A program made the position numbers and the translations under genes. Below the pieces are notes generated by a model, which ran no database searches, had not been told where the DNA came from, and was given only the letters and a program-made list of their open reading frames with translations. Positions 6,674-24,762 of a DNA stretch of 37,905 nucleotides are shown piece after piece; the first letter of the stretch is position 1, and each line of letters begins with the position of its first letter. The stretch is from Halonotius pteroides (GTDB taxonomy: Archaea > Halobacteriota > Halobacteria > Halobacteriales > Haloferacaceae), in the NCBI RefSeq assembly GCF_003605635.1, contig NZ_QMDW01000025.1, positions 1-37,905 of the forward strand. The letters are read 5' to 3'.

Positions 6674-7576
6674 TTATCCAAACTTGCCGGTGATGTAGTC
6701 CTCGACGCGTTGGCTCTCTGGGTTTTCGAAGATCTTCTCGGTGTCGTCGTACTCGATGAGCTCCCCGCCGGTGAGGAAGACCGCGGTCTGATCGGAGATG
6801 CGGGCGGCCTGCTGCATGTTGTGGGTGACGATGACGACGGTGTACTCCTTGGCGAGTTCCTCGACGAGATCCTCGATCTTCGAGGTGGCGATCGGGTCAA
6901 GCGCGGAAGCCGGCTCGTCCATCAGGATCACGTCGGGGTCGACTGCCAGACAGCGGGCGATACAGAGCCGCTGTTGTTGCCCACCCGAGAGCCCGAGAGC
7001 GTTGTCATCGAGGCGGTCGTTGACCTCATCCCACAGGGCAGCCTGTTTGAGCGCGCGCTCGACAAGCTCGGCTTCGGCCTCGGTGTCGTCGCGGCCGAAC
7101 AGCCGGGCGAGCAGCCCCTTCTCGATCTCCCCGTGTTTTCGTGGCCCATAGGAGATGTTCTCACGAATCGACTTCGGGAACGGGTTTGGTGACTGAAACA
7201 CCATCCCGATCCGCTTGCGCAACTCAACGAGGTTGGCGTCCGGATGGTAGATCTCGGTGCCGCCGACCTCGACGGAGCCCTCGACGCGGGCGGCCTTGAT
7301 CCGGTCGTTCATCCGGTTCAGACAGCGGAGGAACGTTGATTTCCCACAGCCGGAGGGGCCGATCAACGCTGTCACCGACTCCTCGGGGATATCCATCGAT
7401 ACGTCCTTCAGCGCGTGATCATCGCCGTACCACACGTTGATATCCTCCACCGAGAGCTTTGTTTCACCAGCTGCGCGGTACTCTGTCCACGCATCACGGG
7501 CTTGCTCGTCGCTTTCGCCCGCTGTCGTTGTTGTTGCTGTGCTCCCAGTGTCCGGCGTTATGTCTGTTTCACTCAT
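6674..7576 (-). CDS. pstB: Phosphate ABC transporter ATP-binding protein PstB
   Basis: A 300-residue ABC ATPase that powers phosphate import. Walker A is GPSGCGKST at 73-81, the Q-loop is [12 protein letters not shown], the signature is [13 protein letters not shown], Walker B is [13 protein letters not shown], and the H-loop is [31 protein letters not shown] is diagnostic of PstB. A variable acidic N-terminal tail (about 40 residues) precedes the ATPase domain, as is common in haloarchaea. Its start overlaps the end of pstA by 8 bases and phoU copy 2 follows after 6 bases, so translation is probably coupled across the operon. Confidence 0.98.
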
Positions 7577-10220
7577 AGTTTAGCTTTCTCCTGAAGTACG
7601 TTCGTGCGGTAATACCGATGGCATAGAACGTCAGGACGACCGAAAGGAGGATCGCCGCCGAGGCCCAGCCCATCTGTGGTGAGCCTGACACCCCAGCGGC
7701 GATCACGGCCCACACCTGCGTCGGCAGCGAGGCCGAGGCGGCGAGCAACTGATCGTTGATAATAAACGGGGGTTCGGCCACAAACTGGAATCCTTGCAGC
7801 ACGTTCACCGATTCGGTAGCGTTCAGCGTCGAGCCCAACACGAGGATCAGCGGCGCGGTTTCGCCGGCGATCCGGCCGATCCCGAGGATCCCGCCGGTGA
7901 TCACCCCTGGCATCGCTGCTGGCAGAACGACGCTTTTGATTGTTTCCCATTGGGAGACACCGAGGGCCGCACTCGCATCACGATACTCGTCGGGTACAGC
8001 CTTGATTGATTCTCGGCTAGTGATCAACACCAACGGCAACAACATAAATCCTAACACCAACATCCCGGCCAGCAGCGACTCATTCCCGCCGAGACGGGGG
8101 ATGATGAACGCGGCTCCAAACAGCCCGAAGACAATACTCGGCGTGCTCCACAGCGCGTTCGTGGCGATCTCGACAACCGCGGTGAACCGACCCTGTTCGG
8201 CGTACTCCGTGAGGAACACCGCCGCGCCGATCCCCAGCGGGACGGCAAACAGCGTCGCGCCGATCACAAGCCAGACGGTGCCGACGACGGCCGGCATAAT
8301 CCCACCGGGTTCCGCCCCAAGCGGGATATACGGCTGGAGGATCATCGGCCACGAGAGCGTCCCCTCGGTTGTCACCGACACGCCAAGCACCGTGAACCCG
8401 GAGCCGGTGGCGAGGACATGCAGACCAAGCAGGGCGATAAAGCCTGCCGCCCCGGTGAGCCCGAGGATCGTTTCCTCGCCGAGTAGCCGATCTTGGAGTG
8501 TTTCGGTTGTGGTACGCCGTGCGTACGCACTCACACCGGCTGCAAGCCCACACGCGAGGGTCGCGAACAGCGCGCCGACCGCGACGAGATCAACCCCGGC
8601 GATACCGGGTGTGTGCCCGGTGACTGGCTGGAGGAGGAGTGCCGCTGTCAACACGGCAAGCCCGCCGAAGACACCCAGCGTAAACAGTGGCGCGCTGGCC
8701 TGCGTTCGGTCGGCGATCGACCCGTTGGTGGTTGCGACGCCAGCAACAGGCAACGCGGCGAGGCCAACTGCGGCAAGCGTGCCGGCCGCGACAACGCCGA
8801 CGCCGACGACCGATCCCAGCGGAACGCCAGCTGGCGTTGGCCCGACAAGGAGGACGCCCCCGATGAGTGCGGCCATCCCTGCGACAGCGACCGGAACGAG
8901 CTGTCGGACTGACTCGGCGCGGGGGAACGCAGCACCGACGTTGCGAAGCGACCCGTAGTTTCTGAACAGCGCGATCCACATGACCGACGCCACGACCGCG
9001 AGAATCACCGCACCGACCTCCGGGTTCGGGGTGATCGTGATCGCGGTCTCTCTCGGGATAAGATTCCGATTTTGGAGGATCTGGTAGTTGAAGCCGTATT
9101 CGATCGGATTGCCGGTGATGAGCACGGTGGTGATCACCGCCGCCACCGCTCCGAGGGTCGCAAGCGGGGCGATCTGGGTCACCAGCCGAACCGTCCGGTT
9201 CCACTCGCCGCCGCCGACCCGGCTGCGAGCAAACTCCGTAGCAAGCGCCAACAGCGGCACCAGCAGTACCAACAGGGTGAGCGCGCTCGTCGTTAAACCG
9301 CGTGTCGCGTAGGTGGCCCCGCGCGTTAGGACAAACAACACAATCGACACCATCGTTACGACCATCAGCAGGGCGTTGAGATTGATGATCAGAAACGCGC
9401 CGTACTCTCGGCCCGGCGCGCCAAACCCGGCTCGGCATTTGGCCGCTGCCCACGCGGAGATGAGTGCCCCAAATGCGGCAAACAGCGGGATGACCACGCC
9501 GCCGGTAAACCCGCCGTCGAGCGTTTCTGGGTTCCACTGCCAGCCGACCCCGATGGCCGCCGTTGCCACGACGACGCCGAGGGTGCCAACCACGAGCCCG
9601 ACCGGGATCGTTGAGCCAAGATCCTCACGCGGGACGATGGTGAGCACCGCCAGCCCGACACCGACGACAATCGGAAACACCAGCCACGCGATCGAGTCAA
9701 AGCCGATTACCGTCCCGCCGAGGGCACCGCCGATCGCGGCCCCGATAACGGCGAAGGCCCCACCGGCGAGTAAGCCAGCACTGGCGTCGGGCTCGGTGTC
9801 GATAATATCCAGTCGTGAGCTGATGCCAGCCCCGCCGATAATGAGTGCTTGGCCGATGAGTACGAATCCAAGGAGGGTTGCCAACGTGACCGTTGTCAGA
9901 TAGGCCACCGCTGTCAGGCCCCCGGTCGCGACGAGCAATCCGCCGGCGACGCCGCGGACGCGCTGTGAGGTGACTGAGACAACGTTTGCCCACGACGCGC
10001 CGGCTGTCAGACCGACGCCACCACTCACGGCCACAAAGAGTGTCAGAAAGTAGTTGCCGAGTGTCGCCCCGGCTGTGCCCAACGGGACGAGCTCGACGAG
10101 TGCCAGCAGGGTTGTCGCGAAGGCAACGATGCTGAGTGCGATCGCCCCGTCGACAAGGCGGTCGTAGCTGGTCGAGCCCTCGGTGACCAGTGCGGTGTCG
10201 TGTGCGTATGCCTCGCTCAT
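7569..10220 (-). CDS. pstA: Phosphate ABC transporter permease PstA with a very long N-terminal membrane extension
   Basis: An 883-residue protein. The last roughly 300 residues are a normal PstA permease: periplasmic-side motif [13 protein letters not shown], the EAA loop [37 protein letters not shown] (given here only as landmark), then [11 protein letters not shown] and a C-terminal FRRKLNYE. The first roughly 560 residues are an extra membrane domain with well over ten hydrophobic segments and no recognisable catalytic motif; bacterial PstA is about 280-300 residues. Its start overlaps the pstC stop in an ATGA. With PstC it forms the phosphate channel. The role of the extension is unknown. 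Confidence 0.93.
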
Positions 10221-11338
10221 GATTGCCCTTTGAGTTTCTGTTTCATCTGTCGTTCAATATACTGTGAGACGATGCTCATCCCGGCGACGATCACGAACAG
10301 CATCACGCCAGCGACGAACAAGACATCGAGTGTGCTCTCGGAGGCACTGCCGTAGTTGACCGCGATCAGACTCGTCAGCGTCGCGCTCGCATCGAAGACA
10401 TCGAACAACGGGTCCGCAAAACCGACCCCGGCGGCCATGATCGCCGCGACCGCCATCGTCTCACCGATCGCCCGGCCCAAGCCAAGAATGACCGCCGCAG
10501 AGATGCCCGAAAACGCCGCGGGGATCGAGATGCTCTTCATCTTTTGCCATTCGGTCGCGCCCATCGCAACCGCCCCATCACCCATGGCATCCGGCACCGA
10601 TGAAAGGGCATCCTCGCCGACCGAAACGATCGTCGGCAACGCCATAATCCCGACGACGATGCCGGCGATCAGGAAGCTCGCGCCGTCGTCGAGAAACGAC
10701 CCCTGAATAAAGCTGTTGAGCACCGCAAACCCGATGAAGCCGTAGACGATCGAGGGGATCCCGGCCAACACCTCAACGCCGGGTTTGATGATCTCTCTGA
10801 GCCGATCGTCGGCAACCTCAGCGATAAACAGCGCGCCAAAGAGCCCAAGCGGGATGGCGACCGCGCCGGCGATGAACGTGACGATCACCGTCGCCCATAT
10901 CGCGGGGATCAGCGAGTAGGCACCGCTGAGTGGGTTCCAGAACGTCTCAGCCGTCGGGAGCACGGCTTCGAGCCAGAAGAACCAGCGTGGTTCACCACTC
11001 TCAGCGGGGAGAAGTAGTAGGCCGCTTCCGTGCTCAGTGAACGCCGGCAGCGCGCTTACGAACAAGAAAACGGTGATAAGAAACACGGTGAGAACGGTCA
11101 GGACGGTCGCAAGCAGTGTCAGCAAGCGTGCGATCGCGCCTTGGTATGTGACCCACCCGATCGTGGTGATGATAACGAAGCCGGCTAACGCGGGGAGGGC
11201 AGCGGCTGGTGCAAACAGGAACGCACCGATCGTCGCCAGCAACATGCCTGCCGACGCACCAACCGCGAGCCGTGATCCTTCAGCTTCATCGGTTCCAAAC
11301 AGTGTGTGTTGTACGTCAACCCAAACTTGGTGTAACAT
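10217..11338 (-). CDS. pstC: Phosphate ABC transporter permease PstC
   Basis: A 373-residue permease with about eight hydrophobic segments. PstC landmarks are LAGIPSIVYGFIGFAVL, the EAA loop around VPDAMGDGAVAMGATEWQKM followed by IPAAFSGISAAVILGLGRAIGETMAV. Two or three additional N-terminal helices (residues 25-100) precede the canonical domain. It pairs with PstA to form the transmembrane pathway of the high-affinity phosphate importer. The gene begins 84 bases after pstS, where the RNA carries an A/T-rich stretch that may set a lower expression level than pstS, and overlaps pstA by 4 bases. Confidence 0.96.
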   Translation of the reverse strand: MLHQVWVDVQHTLFGTDEAEGSRLAVGASAGMLLATIGAFLFAPAAALPALAGFVIITTIGWVTYQGAIARLLTLLATVLTVLTVFLITVFLFVSALPAFTEHGSGLLLLPAESGEPRWFFWLEAVLPTAETFWNPLSGAYSLIPAIWATVIVTFIAGAVAIPLGLFGALFIAEVADDRLREIIKPGVEVLAGIPSIVYGFIGFAVLNSFIQGSFLDDGASFLIAGIVVGIMALPTIVSVGEDALSSVPDAMGDGAVAMGATEWQKMKSISIPAAFSGISAAVILGLGRAIGETMAVAAIMAAGVGFADPLFDVFDASATLTSLIAVNYGSASESTLDVLFVAGVMLFVIVAGMSIVSQYIERQMKQKLKGQS

Positions 11339-12585: not shown

Positions 12586-12944
12586 CGTGCTAATAGATCT
12601 ATGCATTACTACTGTTTGGTATATAGTATATATACTTGTTCGCGTCCTACATATACGCACCCCCAATATCGGGTGTCAGCGGCAGGCTATCAACTAACTG
12701 TTGTTTATTTTACGTCAGTTTATCCCAAAATATAGCCGTTATATGCACTATTTTCATTACATACTGGAGATACCACTCGCGTGGCGCAGATATACTGGTT
12801 GCTTGATAGAAGTATATAATATATGTGTGTGGCTGTTTATCACTTGTATATATTACGTGTTGCAGAGACTATATCGGTGGTAACTGTGGTAGCAACGGTG
12901 ATTTCCGGGGTACGTTGTGTGACAGAGATATAAATATATGAATG

Positions 12945-12954
12945 GATTTATTAG
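12945..12954 (+). promoter_or_regulatory. TATA box of the AbrB-PhoU gene
   Basis: GATTTATTAG lies 21-30 bases before the ATG at 12975 and 27-36 before the ATG at 12981. A second AT-rich run, TATAAATATA, lies about 15 bases further upstream. Confidence 0.45.
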
Positions 12955-12980
12955 CCAGTTCTACACACCATGACATGAAT

Positions 12981-13979
12981 ATGGAGACGCGGAAAGTGCA
13001 GGTGACCGGCGGCTCGACATACACCGTCTCGATCCCAAAAACGTGGGCGAACGACAACGACGTGAGCGCGGGCAGCACCGTCGAGTTCTATCCCGAGGGT
13101 GACTCGCTGTTCATGACGCCGGTAGGTGGTGACGACCAAACAGAGGGAACATTGGACATCACTAATCTTGAAGACACCCAGTTGGTTCGGGCGGTGATGA
13201 CGATGTACGTCAGCGGCTTCGACGTGATCGTTCTCGAAAGCGGTCGGATCACCAACGACCAACGTGGACTGATCCGCGAGGCAACCCAGAGCCTCGTCGG
13301 CCTTGAGGTGTTAGAGGAGACGAAAGACGAGATCGTTATCCGCGATCTGCTTGACTCCTCGGAGCTATCGATCCACAACGCCGTCACCCGGATGCGGCTG
13401 ATCGCCGCCTCGATGCTGGAAGACGCGCTGCTCGCGCTCCGCGATCTTGATCGCGATCTCGCTCACGACGTGATCCAGCGCGACGACGACGTTGATCGCC
13501 TCTGGATGGTCGTCTCCCGCATCTTCCGGGCGACGCTCCGAACCCCCAAAGCCAGCGAGGAACTTGGCCTGCCGCGGGAGGTCTGTTTCGACTACCACTC
13601 AAGCGCCCGCCAACTCGAACGCATCGGCGACCACGCAACGAAGATCGCCCACCTCACCTTGGAGATCGACCAGGAGGTTCCCGAGGATGTCCTCGTTGCC
13701 ATCGAGGGGCTCCACGAGGAGGTTGTCTCGGTGATCGACGGCGGCATGGACGCGTTGTTTACCGACGACAGCGAGGAGGCGACCCGGCTGGCCAACGACG
13801 TGCGCGAGCAGGTGCGTGAGATCGACCAGACGGCCCGCGGGATCGACGAGTTGCTGCGGGAGCTTGATCCTGCCCACGCCCAGCTGGTCGGGCTCATCGT
13901 TGATTCGGTCTCCCGAACCGCCGACTACGGCGGCAACATCGCCGAAACCGCCCTCCAGAAGGCCGCCCCGTCGCCGTAA
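12981..13979 (+). CDS. AbrB-domain/PhoU-domain fusion regulator
   Basis: A 332-residue two-part protein. Residues 1-50 (METRKVQVTGGSTYTVSIPKTWA...) form a SpoVT/AbrB swapped-hairpin DNA-binding domain. The remainder is helical and contains PhoU signatures, notably ARQLERIGDHATKIAHLTLEID and a C-terminal RTADYGGNIAETAL. This architecture is common in archaea, and such proteins are thought to link phosphate status directly to DNA binding. It is divergent from pstS across a shared AT-rich region and is the best local candidate for controlling the pst operon. An ATG two codons upstream (12975) is equally possible. Confidence 0.9.
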   Translation: METRKVQVTGGSTYTVSIPKTWANDNDVSAGSTVEFYPEGDSLFMTPVGGDDQTEGTLDITNLEDTQLVRAVMTMYVSGFDVIVLESGRITNDQRGLIREATQSLVGLEVLEETKDEIVIRDLLDSSELSIHNAVTRMRLIAASMLEDALLALRDLDRDLAHDVIQRDDDVDRLWMVVSRIFRATLRTPKASEELGLPREVCFDYHSSARQLERIGDHATKIAHLTLEIDQEVPEDVLVAIEGLHEEVVSVIDGGMDALFTDDSEEATRLANDVREQVREIDQTARGIDELLRELDPAHAQLVGLIVDSVSRTADYGGNIAETALQKAAPSP

Positions 13980-18972: not shown

Positions 18973-19665
18973 ATGGCTCGCTCCGTGGCGTTCGATGTCC
19001 AACACAGACACGTCGATCCGGCTGCGTGGGACGATATCTACATTGTCGGCGACCCACACGGGTGCCGTGCGGCCGTCGAAACACTCTGCGATCGACTGTC
19101 GCTCACCGACTCGGATCTCCTCATCTTTGTTGGCGATCTGGTTCGCAAGGGCCCAGACACAAAGGGGGTCGTCGATCTCGTTCGATCGGCACCAAACATG
19201 CTGACGGTTCGCGGCAACAACGAGGAGAAACTCCTTCGCGGCGAGAAGACCGTCGATGCGCTCACCGAGGCTGACCTCGATTGGATCGCCGACCAACCGG
19301 CGGTCATCTCGCTGCCGGAGACGCTGATCACCCACGCCGGGGTTGACCCGCGCAAGCCACGAGCCGATCACACAGTCGACGACCTCCAGAACGTCCGATC
19401 GATGGTACCCGACGCCAGCTACCAGCCGCCGTTTTGGTTCGACCGATACGGTGGCCCCGAACGCGTTTTCTTCGGCCACACGGTGCTTTCGGCACCGATC
19501 GTCCGCGAGTACGCGGTCGGCCTTGATACCGGATGTGTGTACGGCAATGAGTTGACAGCCTACGATTGGCGGGCTGACGAACTCAGTACTGTCGCCGCCG
19601 ATGAGACCCACGAAGCCCGACCAGCCGAGAAGTTCATCAGCCCCTCGGTTAATCCACCACAGTAA
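18973..19665 (+). CDS. PPP-family phosphoesterase (ApaH/PrpE-like)
   Basis: A 230-residue metallophosphoesterase of the PPP superfamily, which includes Ser/Thr phosphatases and diadenosine tetraphosphatases. Ordered motifs are GDPHG (26-30), GDLVRKGPDT (54-63), RGNNEEKL (80-87), THAGVDP (120-126), GHTVLSAP and LDTGCVYGNELTAY; the last is typical of ApaH/PrpE. The usual GNHE is GNNE, so the catalytic histidine is replaced by Asn83, while metal ligands D27, H29, D55, N82 and H121 are kept. Substrate could be phosphoprotein, Ap4A or another phosphate ester. An upstream in-frame extension runs through the promoter region and is rejected. Confidence 0.85.
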   Translation: MARSVAFDVQHRHVDPAAWDDIYIVGDPHGCRAAVETLCDRLSLTDSDLLIFVGDLVRKGPDTKGVVDLVRSAPNMLTVRGNNEEKLLRGEKTVDALTEADLDWIADQPAVISLPETLITHAGVDPRKPRADHTVDDLQNVRSMVPDASYQPPFWFDRYGGPERVFFGHTVLSAPIVREYAVGLDTGCVYGNELTAYDWRADELSTVAADETHEARPAEKFISPSVNPPQ

Positions 19666-19722
19666 CAACAGTACCTCTGGGCTCTCACCGCACTCGTTTT
19701 TCAATTAACCGCAAGGTGGAGT

Positions 19723-19750
19723 CCCCTTCCTCAAGGAGCGACCGAAGGGG
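19723..19750 (+). repeat. Left-end hairpin of the TnpB element
   Basis: CCCCTTC and GAAGGGG form a 7-bp stem with an inner CTC/GAG pairing. Similar GC-rich imperfect palindromes at the ends of IS200/IS605 elements are recognised as single-stranded DNA by TnpA. Confidence 0.5.
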
Positions 19751-19817
19751 AGCGAGTAGGGAGGGGAGGAGCCGACTAACCGTAAAATATAAATACTGTT
19801 TGTGCTTTATTGAATAT

Positions 19818-21011
19818 ATGGCGTCGGACGACGAGTACCACCGTCGCACGCTCATTACTCGACTTGAGCTTCGGTCAGCCGAGGATGAGCAACTGCTCCT
19901 CGATACCATTGACGAGTGGCGCGACGGCTGCAATACCGGCAGCGACCTCGCATGGGAAACCTGCCACACTAAGTCCGATGTCAGAAATCACGCCAAAGAC
20001 ACGATCAAACAACAAACCGAGCTGGGCGACCAACACGCCACGCTCGCCTGCCATGAAGTCGCAGGTGCGATTAAATCCTGTATTGAACGTCGAAAACAGG
20101 ATAAGAAGGCCACACGACCGCAGTTCACCAGCCGGTCGATGGTCTTCGACCGGCGAACACTCACCGTCTTTCCCGACCAAGAGAAGATCACGCTCACGAC
20201 GCTAGGCGACCACTCCAGAGTCCACGCGAATCTCGAACTTCCGGAGAACCCGGATGGCTACCAGTACGACTACCTCACCGATGATGAGTGGGAGTACACT
20301 GAGTCCACGCTGCATTATCGGGATGGCGAGTGGTACATCCACCTCGGGTATCGAATGCCAAAACAAGACGCTGATGAGTCAACGACGCAGTACGGAGCGG
20401 TACTGGGTGTTGACTTCGGCGTTAACCAGATCGCCGTCACTAGCACGGCGCGGTTCTTCGATGCCGGGGAACTGAACCACTATCGCCGGGAGTGTGAGCG
20501 TATCCGTGGTGAACTCCAAGAGACAGGCACGCAGTCAGCCCACCGGACAATTGAGCAACTGTCAGGACGTGAAGATCGGTACGTGAAGCACGTCCTGCAT
20601 AGTGTAGCGAACGGGATCGTGGACGAAGCTCTTGAGCATGACTGCGCTGGGATCATCTTGGAAGACTTGAGCGACATCCGTGAGGACTTACCGTTCGCCC
20701 AATGGCACTCGGAGTGGGCGTTCCGAAATCTCAAAGATTTCGTTGAGTACAAAGCCGAGTACGAGGGGTTGTTTGTGGATACACTCGACCCACGAAACAC
20801 ATCGAAACGGTGTAATGAGTGCGGGTTCGTCCATGACAACAATCGTCACAGCGGCGATTTCGAGTGCCGCCGCTGCGGAAAGCAGAATCACGCAGATTAC
20901 AACGCGGCGAAGAACGTGGCTGAATTGTATCTCCTCCGGGGTCATCAGCCGCCTCGTGGGAGGAGCGTCAGTCAATACGCTCTGAAGTCAGGATCGCGGA
21001 CGCCGAGTTGA
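19818..21011 (+). CDS. tnpB: TnpB RNA-guided nuclease / OrfB transposon protein
   Basis: A 397-residue TnpB. The RuvC catalytic triad is intact: D199 in GVDFGVNQIAV, E282 in IILEDLSDI and D360 in NHADYNAAKN. The zinc ribbon is C332/C335 and C350/C353 (CNECG...CRRCG). An N-terminal region of about 190 residues holds the REC/WED-like part. Family members are ancestral relatives of Cas12 and use an RNA made from the element's right end to cut the empty site. A TATA-like AAATATAAATAC lies about 28 bases before the ATG. The triad and zinc ribbon make this copy look functional. Confidence 0.92.
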   Translation: MASDDEYHRRTLITRLELRSAEDEQLLLDTIDEWRDGCNTGSDLAWETCHTKSDVRNHAKDTIKQQTELGDQHATLACHEVAGAIKSCIERRKQDKKATRPQFTSRSMVFDRRTLTVFPDQEKITLTTLGDHSRVHANLELPENPDGYQYDYLTDDEWEYTESTLHYRDGEWYIHLGYRMPKQDADESTTQYGAVLGVDFGVNQIAVTSTARFFDAGELNHYRRECERIRGELQETGTQSAHRTIEQLSGREDRYVKHVLHSVANGIVDEALEHDCAGIILEDLSDIREDLPFAQWHSEWAFRNLKDFVEYKAEYEGLFVDTLDPRNTSKRCNECGFVHDNNRHSGDFECRRCGKQNHADYNAAKNVAELYLLRGHQPPRGRSVSQYALKSGSRTPS

Positions 21012-21121
21012 GGATACACCTCACACCAGCTTGTCGCTGGGTAGAGGCCGAGATCACTGACAAGCCCCACCCTCAACGAGCGAACCCTACTGGGTGAGCG
21101 AAGTAGGGTGGGGTCGTTGAC
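21012..21121 (+). ncRNA. Candidate omegaRNA scaffold at the right end of the TnpB element
   Basis: In IS200/IS605-type elements the guide RNA scaffold overlaps the 3' end of tnpB and the right end, and the guide is the flanking chromosomal sequence. Here the 110 bases after the tnpB stop contain strong pairing potential, chiefly CCCCACCCT (21065-21073) with AGGGTGGGG (21105-21113) and the competing ACCCTAC/GTAGGGT. The guide would then start near 21122. Boundaries and expression are inferred. Confidence 0.4.
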
Positions 21122-21251
21122 ATCGACAACACGGTTCTAGCCGCAATCCTCGCGTATCATACCGACCACCGCAGGTCTCCGTGCTGTTCTTGTATCGACC
21201 CATGTGCTATAGTCTCATCCGAAACCCAAACGGGAGGCTTTCGGGTGGAGA
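21122..21251. other. Intergenic stretch after the TnpB element
   Basis: No supported gene. A frame open for about 45 codons on the plus strand begins inside the element end, has no good start and matches nothing I recognise. If the element is guide-producing, its first 15-20 bases would be the guide. Confidence 0.4.
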
Positions 21252-21380
21252 TCACTCAACAGGGATGACGCCACGCCGCCACAACAGATAGGCGACCACA
21301 CCAGCAACTGCGGTCACGGTTACAAGAAAGACCGCGATCTCAAGTAGCCCTGCACCGCCGAGCGTCCCTCTCGGTAACAT
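21252..21380 (-). CDS. Small single-pass membrane peptide (42 residues)
   Basis: ATG at 21380 opens a 42-codon frame: a short N-terminus MLPRGTLGGAG, a hydrophobic helix LLEIAVFLVTVTAVAGVVAYLLW, then positively charged RRGVIPVE. The hydrophobic stretch is about 22 residues with flanking charges that predict the C-terminus inside. A weak TATA-like CTTTTGC lies about 28 bases upstream. It lies next to speB but on its own transcript. Function unknown; it could be a membrane-stabilising subunit or a spurious frame. Confidence 0.45.
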   Translation of the reverse strand: MLPRGTLGGAGLLEIAVFLVTVTAVAGVVAYLLWRRGVIPVE

Positions 21381-21503
21381 TGTGTGTCGGCGTTGTGTTC
21401 CCCACAGCAAAAGCGGTCGGATTCTCCGAGCCTCGCCTACAGACGGCCGACCGCTATTGACACATACTATCGCCGGTGCTGAACCGTTCGTCTATGATCG
21501 TTC

Positions 21504-22322
21504 TCACGGTGTCGTATTCGCCGCGTGGTGATACACAAACGTCCGGAGTAGTTTGCCAGCCAGTGCGGCGGCCTGCCCATCATCGCGGTCGTTGACCTCA
21601 ACGACATCGAAGCCCGCAGCGGCCGGCGCGACCGCGCTGACAAGCCGCTGTAGCTGTTGGGGCGTCAGCCCGCCGGGCTCCATCGTCCCTGTTCCCGGGG
21701 CGAAGCCCGGATCGGCGGCGTCGATGTCAACGCTCAGATACACCACCTCGTCGTCGAACGCCGGTGGGTCTGCCAGCCAGTCGTCGACAGCGCCGGGTTC
21801 GACGACGGTGACATCGGCCTCGGCGGCGCGTTCCCACTCGGCTTCCGACCCGGTGCGTGCACCGATGATGATCGCTTTCTCTGCTGTGTCCAGCGTGTGG
21901 TTCGTCACACACGCGTGGCTCCATTCGGTGCCATCGTACGCTTCCCGGAGATCGAGATGAGCGTCAAGACAGACGAAGACATCTGGATCGACCGCCTCGA
22001 CAGCTGGGACGGTCACCGTGTGTTCGCCGCCGAGAACGAGCGGGATGGCGTCGTCCCAAACGATATCGCGGAGCTGGCCGCCAAGGTAGTCGATATATTC
22101 CGCTACATCATCCCATGCACGCACGTCACCGGCGTCGTGGACGCCGAGCTCAGTGAAATGCTGTGCTGTCTGATAATCGTAATCGTCGAAGGAACGAGCG
22201 AATCGCCGGATTTCATCGGGCCCGAATCGGGTGCCCGGTTGGAACGTGGTCGTCGCATCCAGCGGCGCGCCGACGACCACATAGGAAGCAGCTTCGCGGT
22301 CGGCGGTCGCGCCCGGGAACAT
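21504..22322 (-). CDS. speB: Agmatinase (ureohydrolase family)
   Basis: A 272-residue binuclear manganese ureohydrolase. Metal-binding motifs are GGEHT (98-102), DAHLD (120-124) and SVDIDAADP (197-205). It should convert agmatine to putrescine and urea; arginase activity cannot be excluded by sequence. Its ATG overlaps the stop of the aIF5A gene (TGATG), so translation is coupled. The pairing makes sense because archaeal aIF5A carries (deoxy)hypusine, and in haloarchaea the aminobutyl group is thought to come through agmatine, with agmatinase completing the pathway. Confidence 0.92.
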   Translation of the reverse strand: MFPGATADREAASYVVVGAPLDATTTFQPGTRFGPDEIRRFARSFDDYDYQTAQHFTELGVHDAGDVRAWDDVAEYIDYLGGQLRDIVWDDAIPLVLGGEHTVTVPAVEAVDPDVFVCLDAHLDLREAYDGTEWSHACVTNHTLDTAEKAIIIGARTGSEAEWERAAEADVTVVEPGAVDDWLADPPAFDDEVVYLSVDIDAADPGFAPGTGTMEPGGLTPQQLQRLVSAVAPAAAGFDVVEVNDRDDGQAAALAGKLLRTFVYHHAANTTP

Positions 22323-22696
22323 CACACGACCTTTCGCTGGCCCTCGTATTCGAGGTACTCGATGTCTTGGTCGCTTTCGAAGGATTCGCCTTCGGGAATC
22401 CGCATGGTAAACGTCTCGTAGGTGTCGAGATCCATCACTTGGGCGTCATCGCCGGTCACCGAGACGACCTGACCCTGTTTTCGCTCGATGATCGGCACCC
22501 AGACCTTCGCGTCGACCGGCTGGCTGAAGCTCCGTTTTCGCTCGTCGAAGACGCCTTTCCCTTCGACGCGGGCCTTCGCACTCCCGTGTTTGCCCGGTTT
22601 GGCCGTGCTGTAGTGGTTGATCGTACACGGCGCGTCATCCATCATCACGTAGCTGCCCTCTTGGAGATCACGAACCTGCTTCTGCTCTCGTGGCAT
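22322..22696 (-). CDS. eif5A: Translation initiation/elongation factor aIF5A
   Basis: A 124-residue archaeal IF5A. The N-terminal SH3-like barrel carries the hypusination loop [17 protein letters not shown], with K36 as the modified lysine. The C-terminal OB fold runs through [14 protein letters not shown] to the end. It binds the ribosome and helps peptide-bond formation at difficult sequences. A TATA-like TTTATA lies 25-30 bases before the ATG, predicting a leaderless mRNA. It is co-transcribed with speB, whose start overlaps its stop. Confidence 0.97.
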
Positions 22697-22791: not shown

Positions 22792-23433
22792 ATGCCCCCT
22801 GCTGATCGCTCCGATCCAGCCCCCGAGACCGACACGTTCCCCTCTGCTGTCGATGACGCGCTTGCTGCGGCCGCCGCGGCGATTGCACAGTGCGAGGCGG
22901 TTGTCTATCCAACTGAAACCGTCTACGGACTGGGAGCCGACGCAACCGATGCCGACGCAGTCAGGCAGGTTTTTGAGATCAAGGGCCGGCCCCGCTCGAA
23001 GCCACTGTCGGTCGGCTTTGCTGACCGCGAGATGCTCACGCAGTATCTCACGCTGACCGACCGCGAGGCGGCGTTTTGCGACCGCTTTCTGCCGGGGCCG
23101 GTGACTCTGCTTGTCGCTCGCGACGGTGTGTTTCCCGACAGCTTAGTCGACGGCGGCGATACCGTCGGCGTTCGGCTCTCTGACAACGCTGTTGCCCGCG
23201 AGTTGGCCCGTCGTGCTGGCCCGATTACCGCCACCAGCGCGAACGAAAGCGGCTCGCCGAGCGTTCGCCGTGTCGACGCCCTCGACGCGACGATCATCGA
23301 CGCTGTCGGTGCCGTCGTCGACACCGGCGAGACGCCGGGCGGCGAGAGTACCGTTGTCGACGTCGCAACCGGCGAGATCCATCGTCGCGGCCCGCTTGCC
23401 GGAGAGATCGAGGCATGGCTCGCCGACCACTAA
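22792..23433 (+). CDS. sua5: Threonylcarbamoyl-AMP synthase (Sua5/YciO/YrdC family)
   Basis: A 213-residue YrdC-domain protein that makes threonylcarbamoyl-AMP from threonine, bicarbonate and ATP, the first step of t6A tRNA modification. Landmarks are VVYPTETVYGLGADATD, the KGRPRSKPLSV nucleotide/RNA-binding segment, LPGPVTLLV and ITATSANESGSPS. It lacks the C-terminal Sua5 domain, so it is the short YrdC form. An Ala-rich, acidic N-terminal tail of about 25 residues precedes the fold. Its end touches the end of the convergent Cas4-like gene (4-base overlap). Confidence 0.93.
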   Translation: MPPADRSDPAPETDTFPSAVDDALAAAAAAIAQCEAVVYPTETVYGLGADATDADAVRQVFEIKGRPRSKPLSVGFADREMLTQYLTLTDREAAFCDRFLPGPVTLLVARDGVFPDSLVDGGDTVGVRLSDNAVARELARRAGPITATSANESGSPSVRRVDALDATIIDAVGAVVDTGETPGGESTVVDVATGEIHRRGPLAGEIEAWLADH

Positions 23434-24092
23434 TCACCTTCCAACCCGAGCAGCGATTTTAGCGACCGGGTCGATACGCCACACTCCGTTCGGTACTCAC
23501 AGGATTCACATCTGCTGTCGTTGACGCGTGGCGGCGGCCCATCCATCGCCTGAACCGTTCGCAACACCTGCCGGTAGGTCGCTGTGCGCCGCGTCGTCAG
23601 CGGCACGTCTCGGACAACGCCGACAGCCGGATACTCGATAAGCGTCCGTGGGATCTCCTCGTTTCGTTCCCAGGCGAGGGCTTTGGCGGCGGCGACCGCC
23701 CGAACGGTCTGGGGGTTCCAGACGCCGTTATCGGGCGGTTCACCCGGCGAGATCAGTGTCGGCGTCGGTGGCTCGCCGGGAATGATCTTGTGGAGTATCC
23801 CAGCACAGTCCTTCCCCTCGACATAGTAGTCGGTCTCGGCAGGTTCACAGAGCCCTTCCCATATCGGTCGCGTCGACAGCGACGCAAGCGCCTCGCGGTA
23901 GGCCGCCGGCGACCGCTTGATCGGCACCGCCGCCAATGTCTCGTCGTCGGCTTCTCGGAGCTCACGGTAGCGAAAGGCGAGCTGTTGTGTGTTTTCGACC
24001 GACGCTGGCGGCCCCTCGTCGTCGTGTTTGCGGGCGTAGTAGAGCTGGCGGGGACAGTACGCCGCCCGGCTTAGCTCGCTGAACGTCGGCAT
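23430..24092 (-). CDS. Cas4-like protein (PD-D/ExK superfamily), probably without nuclease activity
   Basis: A 220-residue protein with the Cas4/Dna2 Fe-S cysteine arrangement: C13 in the RAAYCPRQLYYAR motif and C195, C198 and C204 in CESCEYRTEC. Between them, the family's helix with QxxxY-like residues is visible near RTATYRQVL. The central nuclease motif normally has D followed by ExK; here the equivalent segment reads GILHKIIPGEPPTPTLISPG, with no clear ExK. No other cas gene or repeat array is nearby. It could be a DNA-binding or repair protein with an Fe-S cluster. The ATG giving MPTFSELSRAAYCPR is chosen; longer starts invade the next gene. Confidence 0.72.
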   Translation of the reverse strand: MPTFSELSRAAYCPRQLYYARKHDDEGPPASVENTQQLAFRYRELREADDETLAAVPIKRSPAAYREALASLSTRPIWEGLCEPAETDYYVEGKDCAGILHKIIPGEPPTPTLISPGEPPDNGVWNPQTVRAVAAAKALAWERNEEIPRTLIEYPAVGVVRDVPLTTRRTATYRQVLRTVQAMDGPPPRVNDSRCESCEYRTECGVSTRSLKSLLGLEGD

Positions 24093-24113
24093 AGCTCCGG
24101 ATGGCCGCGGCTT

Positions 24114-24123
24114 GGTATTTGAA
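24114..24123 (-). promoter_or_regulatory. TATA-like box of the Cas4-like gene
   Basis: TTCAAATACC on the minus strand, 22-31 bases before the ATG at 24092. It supports that start and separate transcription from the upstream gene. Confidence 0.4.
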
Positions 24124-24162
24124 CCCTCGGGGCGCAACCGCCGTTCCGACGAACGGTGCAGC

Positions 24163-24762
24163 TCAGAACGAGACGTCAGTTTCCATGTCCTCAGTTGCCT
24201 CCTGAAGCCCGTCTTCGTGAGCATCGGCGGCGAGACGATTCGTGAGATCGGCGTCGGTCAGCAGCTCGGCAAACTCATCGCGGAAGCGGCTGTTGGCTCG
24301 TGTCGATCGCTGGTCGGCAGCTGCCACCTCGCTATACTGCTGTGCGGTCTCGACGGAGACAGCAAGCTGTTCAGCGCGGTCTTCCAGCGACATGTCCTCC
24401 GCCAGCAGCTGACGCAGTCGGTTGAACTCGAAGGGGGCCTCTCGCTCGGCATCCCGAACAAGATGGAGATCGAGCCGGGCCTGTCGCACGCTCGCCGGCT
24501 CACAGTCCAGTGTCGCCGCGATCGACTCGTCGTCTTCGTCGTTGTGGAAGCCACGCAGCACCGCAATCAGGTCGTCGGCCTCCAGCGATGTCTGAAAGTC
24601 GTACTGGTCGCGCATTCGATCGATGAGCGTCCGGAGTCGATCGCCGACATCCGTCTCGTCGTCGGTTAGCGACCCCGGCGACTCCGATTGGGTTTCGGTG
24701 ACGGTCTCCGAGTCGGTTGTCTCCATGAAGATGTCTCGGAGCTCTTCGGTCTTTTCGTCCAT
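24163..24762 (-). CDS. cmi4: Conditioned-medium-induced protein 4 family
   Basis: A 199-residue, very acidic soluble protein. It matches the haloarchaeal family annotated as conditioned-medium-induced protein 4: a start of MDEKTEELRDIF, a Ser/Thr/Glu-rich linker, LRTLIDRMRDQYDFQT, then a helix-turn-helix-like region DDESIAATLDCEPASVRQARLDLHLV, and a short TDVSF tail. The family name comes from induction by spent medium in a haloalkaliphile. The HTH-like segment suggests a DNA-binding or regulatory role, which is inference. A clear TATA-like GGTTTTATATCC lies 22-31 bases upstream. Confidence 0.75.
   Translation of the reverse strand: MDEKTEELRDIFMETTDSETVTETQSESPGSLTDDETDVGDRLRTLIDRMRDQYDFQTSLEADDLIAVLRGFHNDEDDESIAATLDCEPASVRQARLDLHLVRDAEREAPFEFNRLRQLLAEDMSLEDRAEQLAVSVETAQQYSEVAAADQRSTRANSRFRDEFAELLTDADLTNRLAADAHEDGLQEATEDMETDVSF

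What the first reader, a model, noticed from the sequence alone, without database searches (positions are those of the whole stretch)
19705..21140. Catalytically intact TnpB with hairpin ends and a readable candidate guide
D199, E282, D360 and the zinc ribbon are present, and the right end carries strong stems that could form an omegaRNA. If so, the roughly 16-20 bases after 21121 would be the guide, and the sequence just left of about 19705 would contain the target-adjacent motif. No TnpA is present.
Basis: partly seen in the sequence, partly recalled or inferred. Interest (0 to 1): 0.55.

Follow-up and report, generated by a model that had tools for sequence, protein, structure and literature searches.

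The report
Haloarchaeal solo TnpB insertion element, intact
A small jumping element in a salt-loving archaeon carries an apparently intact RNA-guided DNA cutter and the RNA that would aim it back at the spot where the element sits; this is a well-preserved example of a known kind, with its ends now pinned down by comparison with empty sites.

Summary
The finding holds and most of its details are right. The 397-aa TnpB (19818-21011) has D199, E282, D360 and a four-cysteine zinc ribbon, invariant in the 20 sequences aligned (window included), and is under purifying selection (dN/dS 0.07 against the Halonotius aquaticus copy). Relatives place the right end at 21121 (GTTGAC) and the target-adjacent motif TTCAA at 19700-19704, so the element is 19705-21121 (1417 bp). 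H. aquaticus carries the uninterrupted site, and a second family member inserted in an aldo/keto reductase gene shows the same rule. The right end (about 20931-21121) is a covarying RNA scaffold: 19 of 66 pairs show changes on both sides, and the terminal GUUGAC can pair with a hairpin loop inside tnpB. The predicted guide is 21122-21141. No TnpA was found in the window or within the flanks fetched of 36 related loci. Best reading: a solo IS200/IS605-type (IS1341-like) element whose TnpB-omegaRNA cuts empty copies of its own site and so keeps the element. Haloarchaeal omegaRNAs are published; this one does not match the two Rfam sotRNA models. Expression and cleavage are untested. New member of a known kind.

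The parts
19700..19704 (+). Target-adjacent motif TTCAA (part of the target, not of the element)
   Evidence: 18 of 24 left ends read TTCAA and 23 of 24 TCAA; the script took the last TCA[AG] upstream, so T-C-A is 24 of 24 by construction; 2 of 26 left rows were dropped as another type; the window's own row is among the 24. TCAA stands at the uninterrupted L060-type site in 9 of 12 fetched loci.
19705..21121 (+). Whole element, 1417 bp, no target duplication seen
   Evidence: Flanks lie side by side, without the element, in H. aquaticus (L073); joined flanks align across the junction with a one-base gap in the motif; ends shared with relatives and with 9 of the 20 listed plasmid hits, whose matches end at window 21121-21124.
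19720..19768 (+). Left-end subterminal hairpin, similar in sequence and layout to the right-end hairpin
   Evidence: Left/right alignment score 55 against a shuffled mean of 12.6, 0 of 2000 as high; 19718-19772 is 98% identical in L043, whose protein is 51% identical. As a lone fold not significant.
19788..19795 (+). TATA-like box TATAAATA, 23-30 bases before the ATG; suggests the gene's own promoter and a nearly leaderless mRNA
   Evidence: Sequence; a TATA-like stretch is clear in L043, L045 and L059, less clear in the other 8 of 11 relatives compared. Inference.
19818..21011 (+). tnpB, 397 aa, RNA-guided endonuclease TnpB
   Evidence: NF040570 guided_TnpB 154.7 bits, cut-off 100; PF07282 and PF01385 over cut-off; catalytic and zinc residues invariant in 20 of 20 sequences, window included; dN 0.042, dS 0.587 against L034.
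20931..21121 (+). Predicted omegaRNA scaffold: hairpin 1 (20931-20962), hairpin 2 (20963-20982), central stem, right-end hairpin (21064-21114), pseudoknot
   Evidence: 23-sequence alignment: 89.1% of cells paired, 19 of 66 pairs with changes on both sides, 63 such cells against 18.8 shuffled and 4-13 when slid. The 5' end is a guess.
20971..20976 (+). Pseudoknot arm 1, GTCAAT, in the loop of hairpin 2, inside the tnpB reading frame
   Evidence: Complementary to 21116-21121; 99.3% of cells paired, no double changes; also chosen by RNAalifold.
21116..21121 (+). Terminal GTTGAC: pseudoknot arm 2 and right end of the element
21122..21141 (+). Predicted guide ATCGACAACACGGTTCTAGC (length assumed 16-20)
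   Evidence: First flank bases after the conserved end; no base conserved there across 23 rows. 12 of 20 bases match the orthologous empty site of H. aquaticus.

Best explanation
This is a solo tnpB insertion element of the IS200/IS605 superfamily (IS1341-like, no transposase of its own) in a Halonotius-like haloarchaeon. A Y1 transposase acting in trans, recognising the alike subterminal hairpins, would have put it 3' of TTCAA without duplicating the target. The tnpB transcript would run through the right end; its 3' part would fold into a pseudoknotted omegaRNA whose last scaffold bases GUUGAC lie at the element's edge, with the next 16-20 bases of flank as guide. TnpB with this RNA would cut DNA bearing TTCAA followed by the guide sequence, that is, the uninterrupted site, which lets homologous repair copy the element back or into the cell's other chromosome copies. 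It would spare its own locus, where GTTGAC stands in place of TTCAA. Shown here by computation: the intact protein, purifying selection, the ends, the motif in empty sites, covarying RNA structure. Inferred: transcription, processing, cleavage, trans mobilisation, the retention/drive role.
For: Family assignment; catalytic and zinc residues; dN/dS 0.07; ends and motif; empty sites; a 92% identical copy at another site with another flank in H. aquaticus, so the element moves; scaffold covariation and pseudoknot; alike hairpins; the only match to TCAA plus 18 guide bases with up to 3 mismatches in the own genome is the element's own right junction. [quoted passage not shown] TnpB makes omegaRNA from its own mRNA and has TAMs of at most 5 nt (PMC10278001: abstract and TAM section read); TnpB drives its element through plasmid copies (PMC11870625: abstract read).
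Against: No transcript or cleavage data. No TnpA found in the window or in the fetched flanks of 36 related loci, and the ends of the two TnpA-bearing elements that I read by eye look different, so the mobilising enzyme is unidentified. The H. aquaticus site reads TCCAA where the motif should be and matches 12 of 20 guide bases, so it is an orthologous empty site, not a proven cleavable target; blastn there resumed only at 21147, 25 bases into the right flank. At the second site 3 of 12 uninterrupted loci lack TCAA. A search of the own genome with the left flank of the H. aquaticus insertion found nothing, so the reciprocal empty site is untested. The pseudoknot shows no double changes and one arm is coding sequence, so its conservation is partly explained by the protein. 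Parts of the central region (helices 6 and 7, and the two pairs of columns 91-92 of helix 4) are not supported by the alignment. Many rows come from one genus (g14), so counts over rows are not independent events.
Confidence: 0.85

Rival explanations
1. The element is an immobile remnant: the protein is maintained for a host function such as RNA-guided regulation or defence, in the manner of domesticated TnpB relatives.
For: No TnpA nearby; strong purifying selection.
Against: The orthologous locus in H. aquaticus is empty and its closest copy sits elsewhere with another flank; printed flanks differ among relatives except L043/L044; intact catalytic triad, unlike nuclease-dead TldR (TldR recalled). 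The neighbour genes of the relatives were not compared.
Confidence: 0.07
2. The protein is a type V CRISPR effector (Cas12f-like), not an element protein.
For: Best solved-structure matches by sequence and fold are AsCas12f; PADLOC Cas12u3 and Cas12f models hit; NCBIfam Cas12f2 119 bits, but cut-off 450.
Against: No direct-repeat family of 21 or more bases with copies within 150 bases in the window; element ends and motif like a transposon; NF040570 guided_TnpB passes its cut-off. CRISPR arrays elsewhere in the genome were not sought.
Confidence: 0.02
3. The right-end structure serves only as a DNA hairpin for a transposase, and there is no functional omegaRNA.
For: Left and right hairpins are alike, as Y1 recognition at both ends would need; no expression data.
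Against: Covarying stems continue upstream into the coding sequence, and hairpin 2's loop can pair with the terminal GTTGAC; sotRNA/omegaRNA transcripts are known from haloarchaeal tnpB genes (PMC12558985).
Confidence: 0.06

Closest known systems
Haloarchaeal IS200/IS605 tnpB with sotRNA/omegaRNA (Halobacterium salinarum; Rfam RF02656 sot0042, RF02657 sot2652)
   Same: tnpB with a structured RNA overlapping its 3' end; [quoted passage not shown]
   Different: Neither Rfam model matches this locus (no Rfam match at E up to 1 on 19300-21600; no match on contig C34). In the same genome sot0042 gives 10 matches, 1 over its gathering score, and sot2652 gives 2, none over it; at least 6 of the 10 lie just downstream of tnpB matches. 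So a distinct omegaRNA subfamily, by those models.
ISDra2 TnpB (Deinococcus radiodurans)
   Same: RuvC triad, zinc ribbon, guide at the right end, 5-nt motif (partly recalled).
   Different: Low sequence similarity (8bf8 E 2.6e-5); motif here TTCAA against TTGAT (PMC10278001); no TnpA here.
Sulfolobus islandicus TnpB7
   Same: Archaeal TnpB active in its natural host (PMC11043419, abstract and passages seen).
   Different: TTTAA motif and conserved UUCAC in its RNA (passages); TTCAA and GUUGAC here. A nested element elsewhere in this genome (C104) seems to have TTTAA with TTCAC.
AsCas12f1
   Same: Closest solved structure by sequence (8j3r, E 5.8e-28) and by fold (8j12).
   Different: CRISPR effector with array-derived guides (recalled); TM-scores here 0.45 and 0.43, on a model of pTM 0.47.

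Membership tests
TnpB RNA-guided endonuclease | RuvC D-E-D triad and C4 zinc ribbon | tested here: met
   D199, E282, D360, C332, C335, C350, C353 invariant in 20 of 20 sequences, window included
TnpB RNA-guided endonuclease | Curated family score | tested here: met
   NF040570 154.7 bits, cut-off 100
TnpB RNA-guided endonuclease | RNA-guided DNA cleavage | not testable with these tools
   No experiment
IS200/IS605-type element | Defined ends 3' of a fixed motif, no target duplication, shown by empty site | tested here: met
   caveats: one-base difference in the motif of the H. aquaticus site, 9 of 12 at the second site
IS200/IS605-type element | Subterminal hairpins alike at both ends | tested here: met
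   the left hairpin alone is not significant as a fold
IS200/IS605-type element | Own Y1 transposase TnpA | tested here: not met
   None on the contig nor in the fetched flanks of 36 related loci; hence only 'solo tnpB, IS1341-like'
OMEGA omegaRNA | Conserved covarying scaffold at the tnpB 3' end reaching the element edge | tested here: met
OMEGA omegaRNA | Transcribed and processed | not testable with these tools
   No RNA data
Rfam sot0042 / sot2652 | Match to the covariance model | tested here: not met
Type V-F CRISPR (Cas12f) | CRISPR array nearby | tested here: not met
   No repeat family in the 37.9-kb window; rest of the genome not examined
TldR (nuclease-dead TnpB) | Lost RuvC residues | tested here: not met
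   Triad intact; definition of TldR recalled

The most novel reading that the evidence does not exclude
A tnpB lineage without its own transposase, with matches at E up to 1e-120 in 31 of 148 genomes searched and 12 of 28 genera of the family (own genome included), may persist mainly by TnpB-driven conversion of empty chromosome copies: in polyploid haloarchaea (polyploidy recalled) a single insertion could be copied into all genome copies of a cell, a chromosomal analogue of the gene drive reported for plasmids (PMC11870625, abstract).
Probability: 0.2. Interest if true: 0.6.

Novelty: new member of a known kind. Interest (0 to 1): 0.3.

Why it matters
It gives a small (397 aa) haloarchaeal TnpB with a complete, testable parts list: motif TTCAA, scaffold, pseudoknot and guide. 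It also points to an omegaRNA subfamily that the two Rfam sotRNA models do not detect, and it is a clean case for asking how tnpB elements without a transposase persist in archaea that carry many chromosome copies.

Tried and rejected
Rfam at E up to 1 on 19300-21600: nothing. Viral contigs with the TnpB protein (close relatives only): no match; phage records with the element DNA: no match. Reciprocal empty site, own genome searched with the left flank of the H. aquaticus insertion: no match, which the tool itself calls uninformative. Targets of the guide in viruses: the first 16 guide bases occur exactly in 25 IMG/VR stretches, several sharing one context; none of the 25 is preceded by TCAA, so no case for antiviral targeting. 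Other targets in the own genome: none with up to 3 mismatches in TCAA plus 18 guide bases. Candidate trans TnpA: the ends of the TnpA-bearing elements on C20 and C104, read by eye, differ from this one; on C28 I drew no conclusion and the other three were not looked at. Copies of the right end without tnpB: of the 5 other matches in the own genome, 4 lie beside tnpB matches and the fifth is a weak 18-base match, so none was found; the left end was not searched. Cas12f membership was considered because and rejected. The predicted structure is moderate (pLDDT 74, pTM 0.47), so fold matches add little beyond sequence. My first count of right ends used a query cut at the presumed end; I repeated it with an open query.

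Full report
What was checked. The ORF at 19818-21011 translates to 397 aa and carries D199, E282, D360 and two CxxC pairs at 332/335 and 350/353. It passes the curated cut-offs of NCBIfam guided_TnpB and of Pfam Cas12f1-like_TNB and OrfB_IS605. All seven residues are invariant in an alignment of 20 sequences, the window and 19 homologues 35-92% identical to it. Against the 92% identical H. aquaticus copy, dN is 0.042 and dS 0.587: the protein is being kept.

Where it lives. The window is one contig (C34) of a 3.0-Mb genome in 115 contigs. The genus mate G001 has a contig (81,899 bases) with the match at the same place as Halonotius aquaticus F13-13 contig 12, so I take G001 to be that strain and G000 to be a Halonotius-like haloarchaeon. 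The element lies between a metallophosphoesterase gene (about 18979-19665) and an agmatinase/arginase-family gene (21504-22325, minus). The genome has 34 TnpB matches and 6 Y1 transposase matches, none on C34. Related DNA is also found in 69 plasmid records.

Boundaries. H. aquaticus has both flanks of this element side by side (G001:C18, about 89% identity) and no element there, while its own close copy is on contig C3 with other flanks. The window's flanks joined at 19704/21122 align across that site with a one-base gap in the motif; there are two more one-base gaps some 50 or more bases into the right flank, and the first 20 bases of the right flank match at only 12 positions. With a query open to 21220, 33 of 37 relatives gave a right-end match: 19 end at 21121, 28 at 21120-21127, 5 earlier. 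In a query cut at 21121, 23 of 27 rows (window included) reach that base and all 23 read GTTGAC; two more stop one base earlier and read GTTGAT, two stop earlier still. Of 26 left-end rows two were dropped as another type; of the 24 kept, 18 read TTCAA and 23 TCAA, but the script located the motif by its TCA, so only the outer letters are independent. The base after the right end is unconserved (c 9, a 7, t 4, g 3 of 23), which puts the end of the motif at TTCAA. A second member (L060) sits in an aldo/keto reductase gene; the joined 274-base query matched all 52 genomes searched (paralogues included), and the 12 best loci fetched are uninterrupted, 9 of 12 with TCAA at the junction and 3 with TTAA or TCGA. 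G134 is interrupted at that same place by about 1.4 kb (content not read).

RNA. The right-end strand folds well beyond shuffles. Of 25 right ends reaching 21120 or further, 24 were distinct; L061 was left out for its insert, and 23 were aligned. The structure derived from the window keeps 89.1% of cells paired, with 19 of 66 pairs changed on both sides and 63 such cells against 18.8 in shuffles and 4-13 in slid versions. Hairpins 1 and 2 lie inside tnpB and are 98.6 and 100% paired; helices 6 and 7 of the central region are not supported (62.9 and 54.5%). RNAalifold on its own paired the loop of hairpin 2 with the terminal GUUGAC, which resembles the pseudoknot described for H. salinarum omegaRNAs (PMC12558985, section 3.3.3 read). 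That pseudoknot has no double changes, so it rests on conservation and complementarity. The structure came from one of the rows, so counts lean towards it.

Known or new. Rfam's two haloarchaeal sotRNA families do not match here. In the same genome sot0042 gives 10 matches at E up to 1 (1 over the gathering score) and sot2652 gives 2 (none over it), several directly after tnpB matches. Text searches found haloarchaeal omegaRNA work and no paper holding both 'TnpB' and 'TTCAA', in an open-licence library only. So the element is a new member of a known kind, with an omegaRNA subfamily that those models miss.

Mechanism. By analogy with studied TnpBs, the complex should cut the empty site and spare the filled one, because the filled site has GTTGAC, not TTCAA, before the guide sequence; the own genome holds no other site within 3 mismatches of TCAA plus 18 guide bases. 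That would explain both retention and spread among chromosome copies. The transposase is unidentified: tblastn with the genome's six TnpA sequences found none in the window or in 36 related loci (four places appear twice among them; flanks of about 1.5-3 kb where available), while both control loci were found.

Noticed in passing
G000:C104:128579-131305 (L020, L005, L026): One tnpB gene of the same genome is interrupted by another TnpB element (about 129096-130649, minus, ends read by eye). The join at these ends is in frame (as every third position would be), and the nested element seems to have motif TTTAA with right end TTCAC, unlike TTCAA with GTTGAC here: two motif/end pairings in one genome.
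   Followed up: partly
window 23430-24224 (-): Possible stand-alone Cas4-like gene: Pfam Cas_Cas4 below its cut-off and PADLOC Cas4 models, best E 6.3e-9; no CRISPR-like repeats in the window.
   Followed up: no
G134:C1:123087-124494 and G118:C10:108862-110268: Two genomes of one genus have about 1.4-kb interruptions at the same point of an aldo/keto reductase gene: shared descent or repeated use of the same target. The content of the G134 one was not read.
   Followed up: no
window 19809-19814: ATTGAA ending 3-4 bases before the start codon recurs upstream of tnpB in 8 of 11 relatives compared, including the 51% identical ones; L035-L037 lack it. It is the complement of TTCAAT. Start signal or end-recognition sequence is unclear.
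   Followed up: no
window 12942-13979 (+): PhoU-domain protein with an N-terminal MazE-type domain, on the same contig as two transporter membrane genes at 7569-11338.
   Followed up: no
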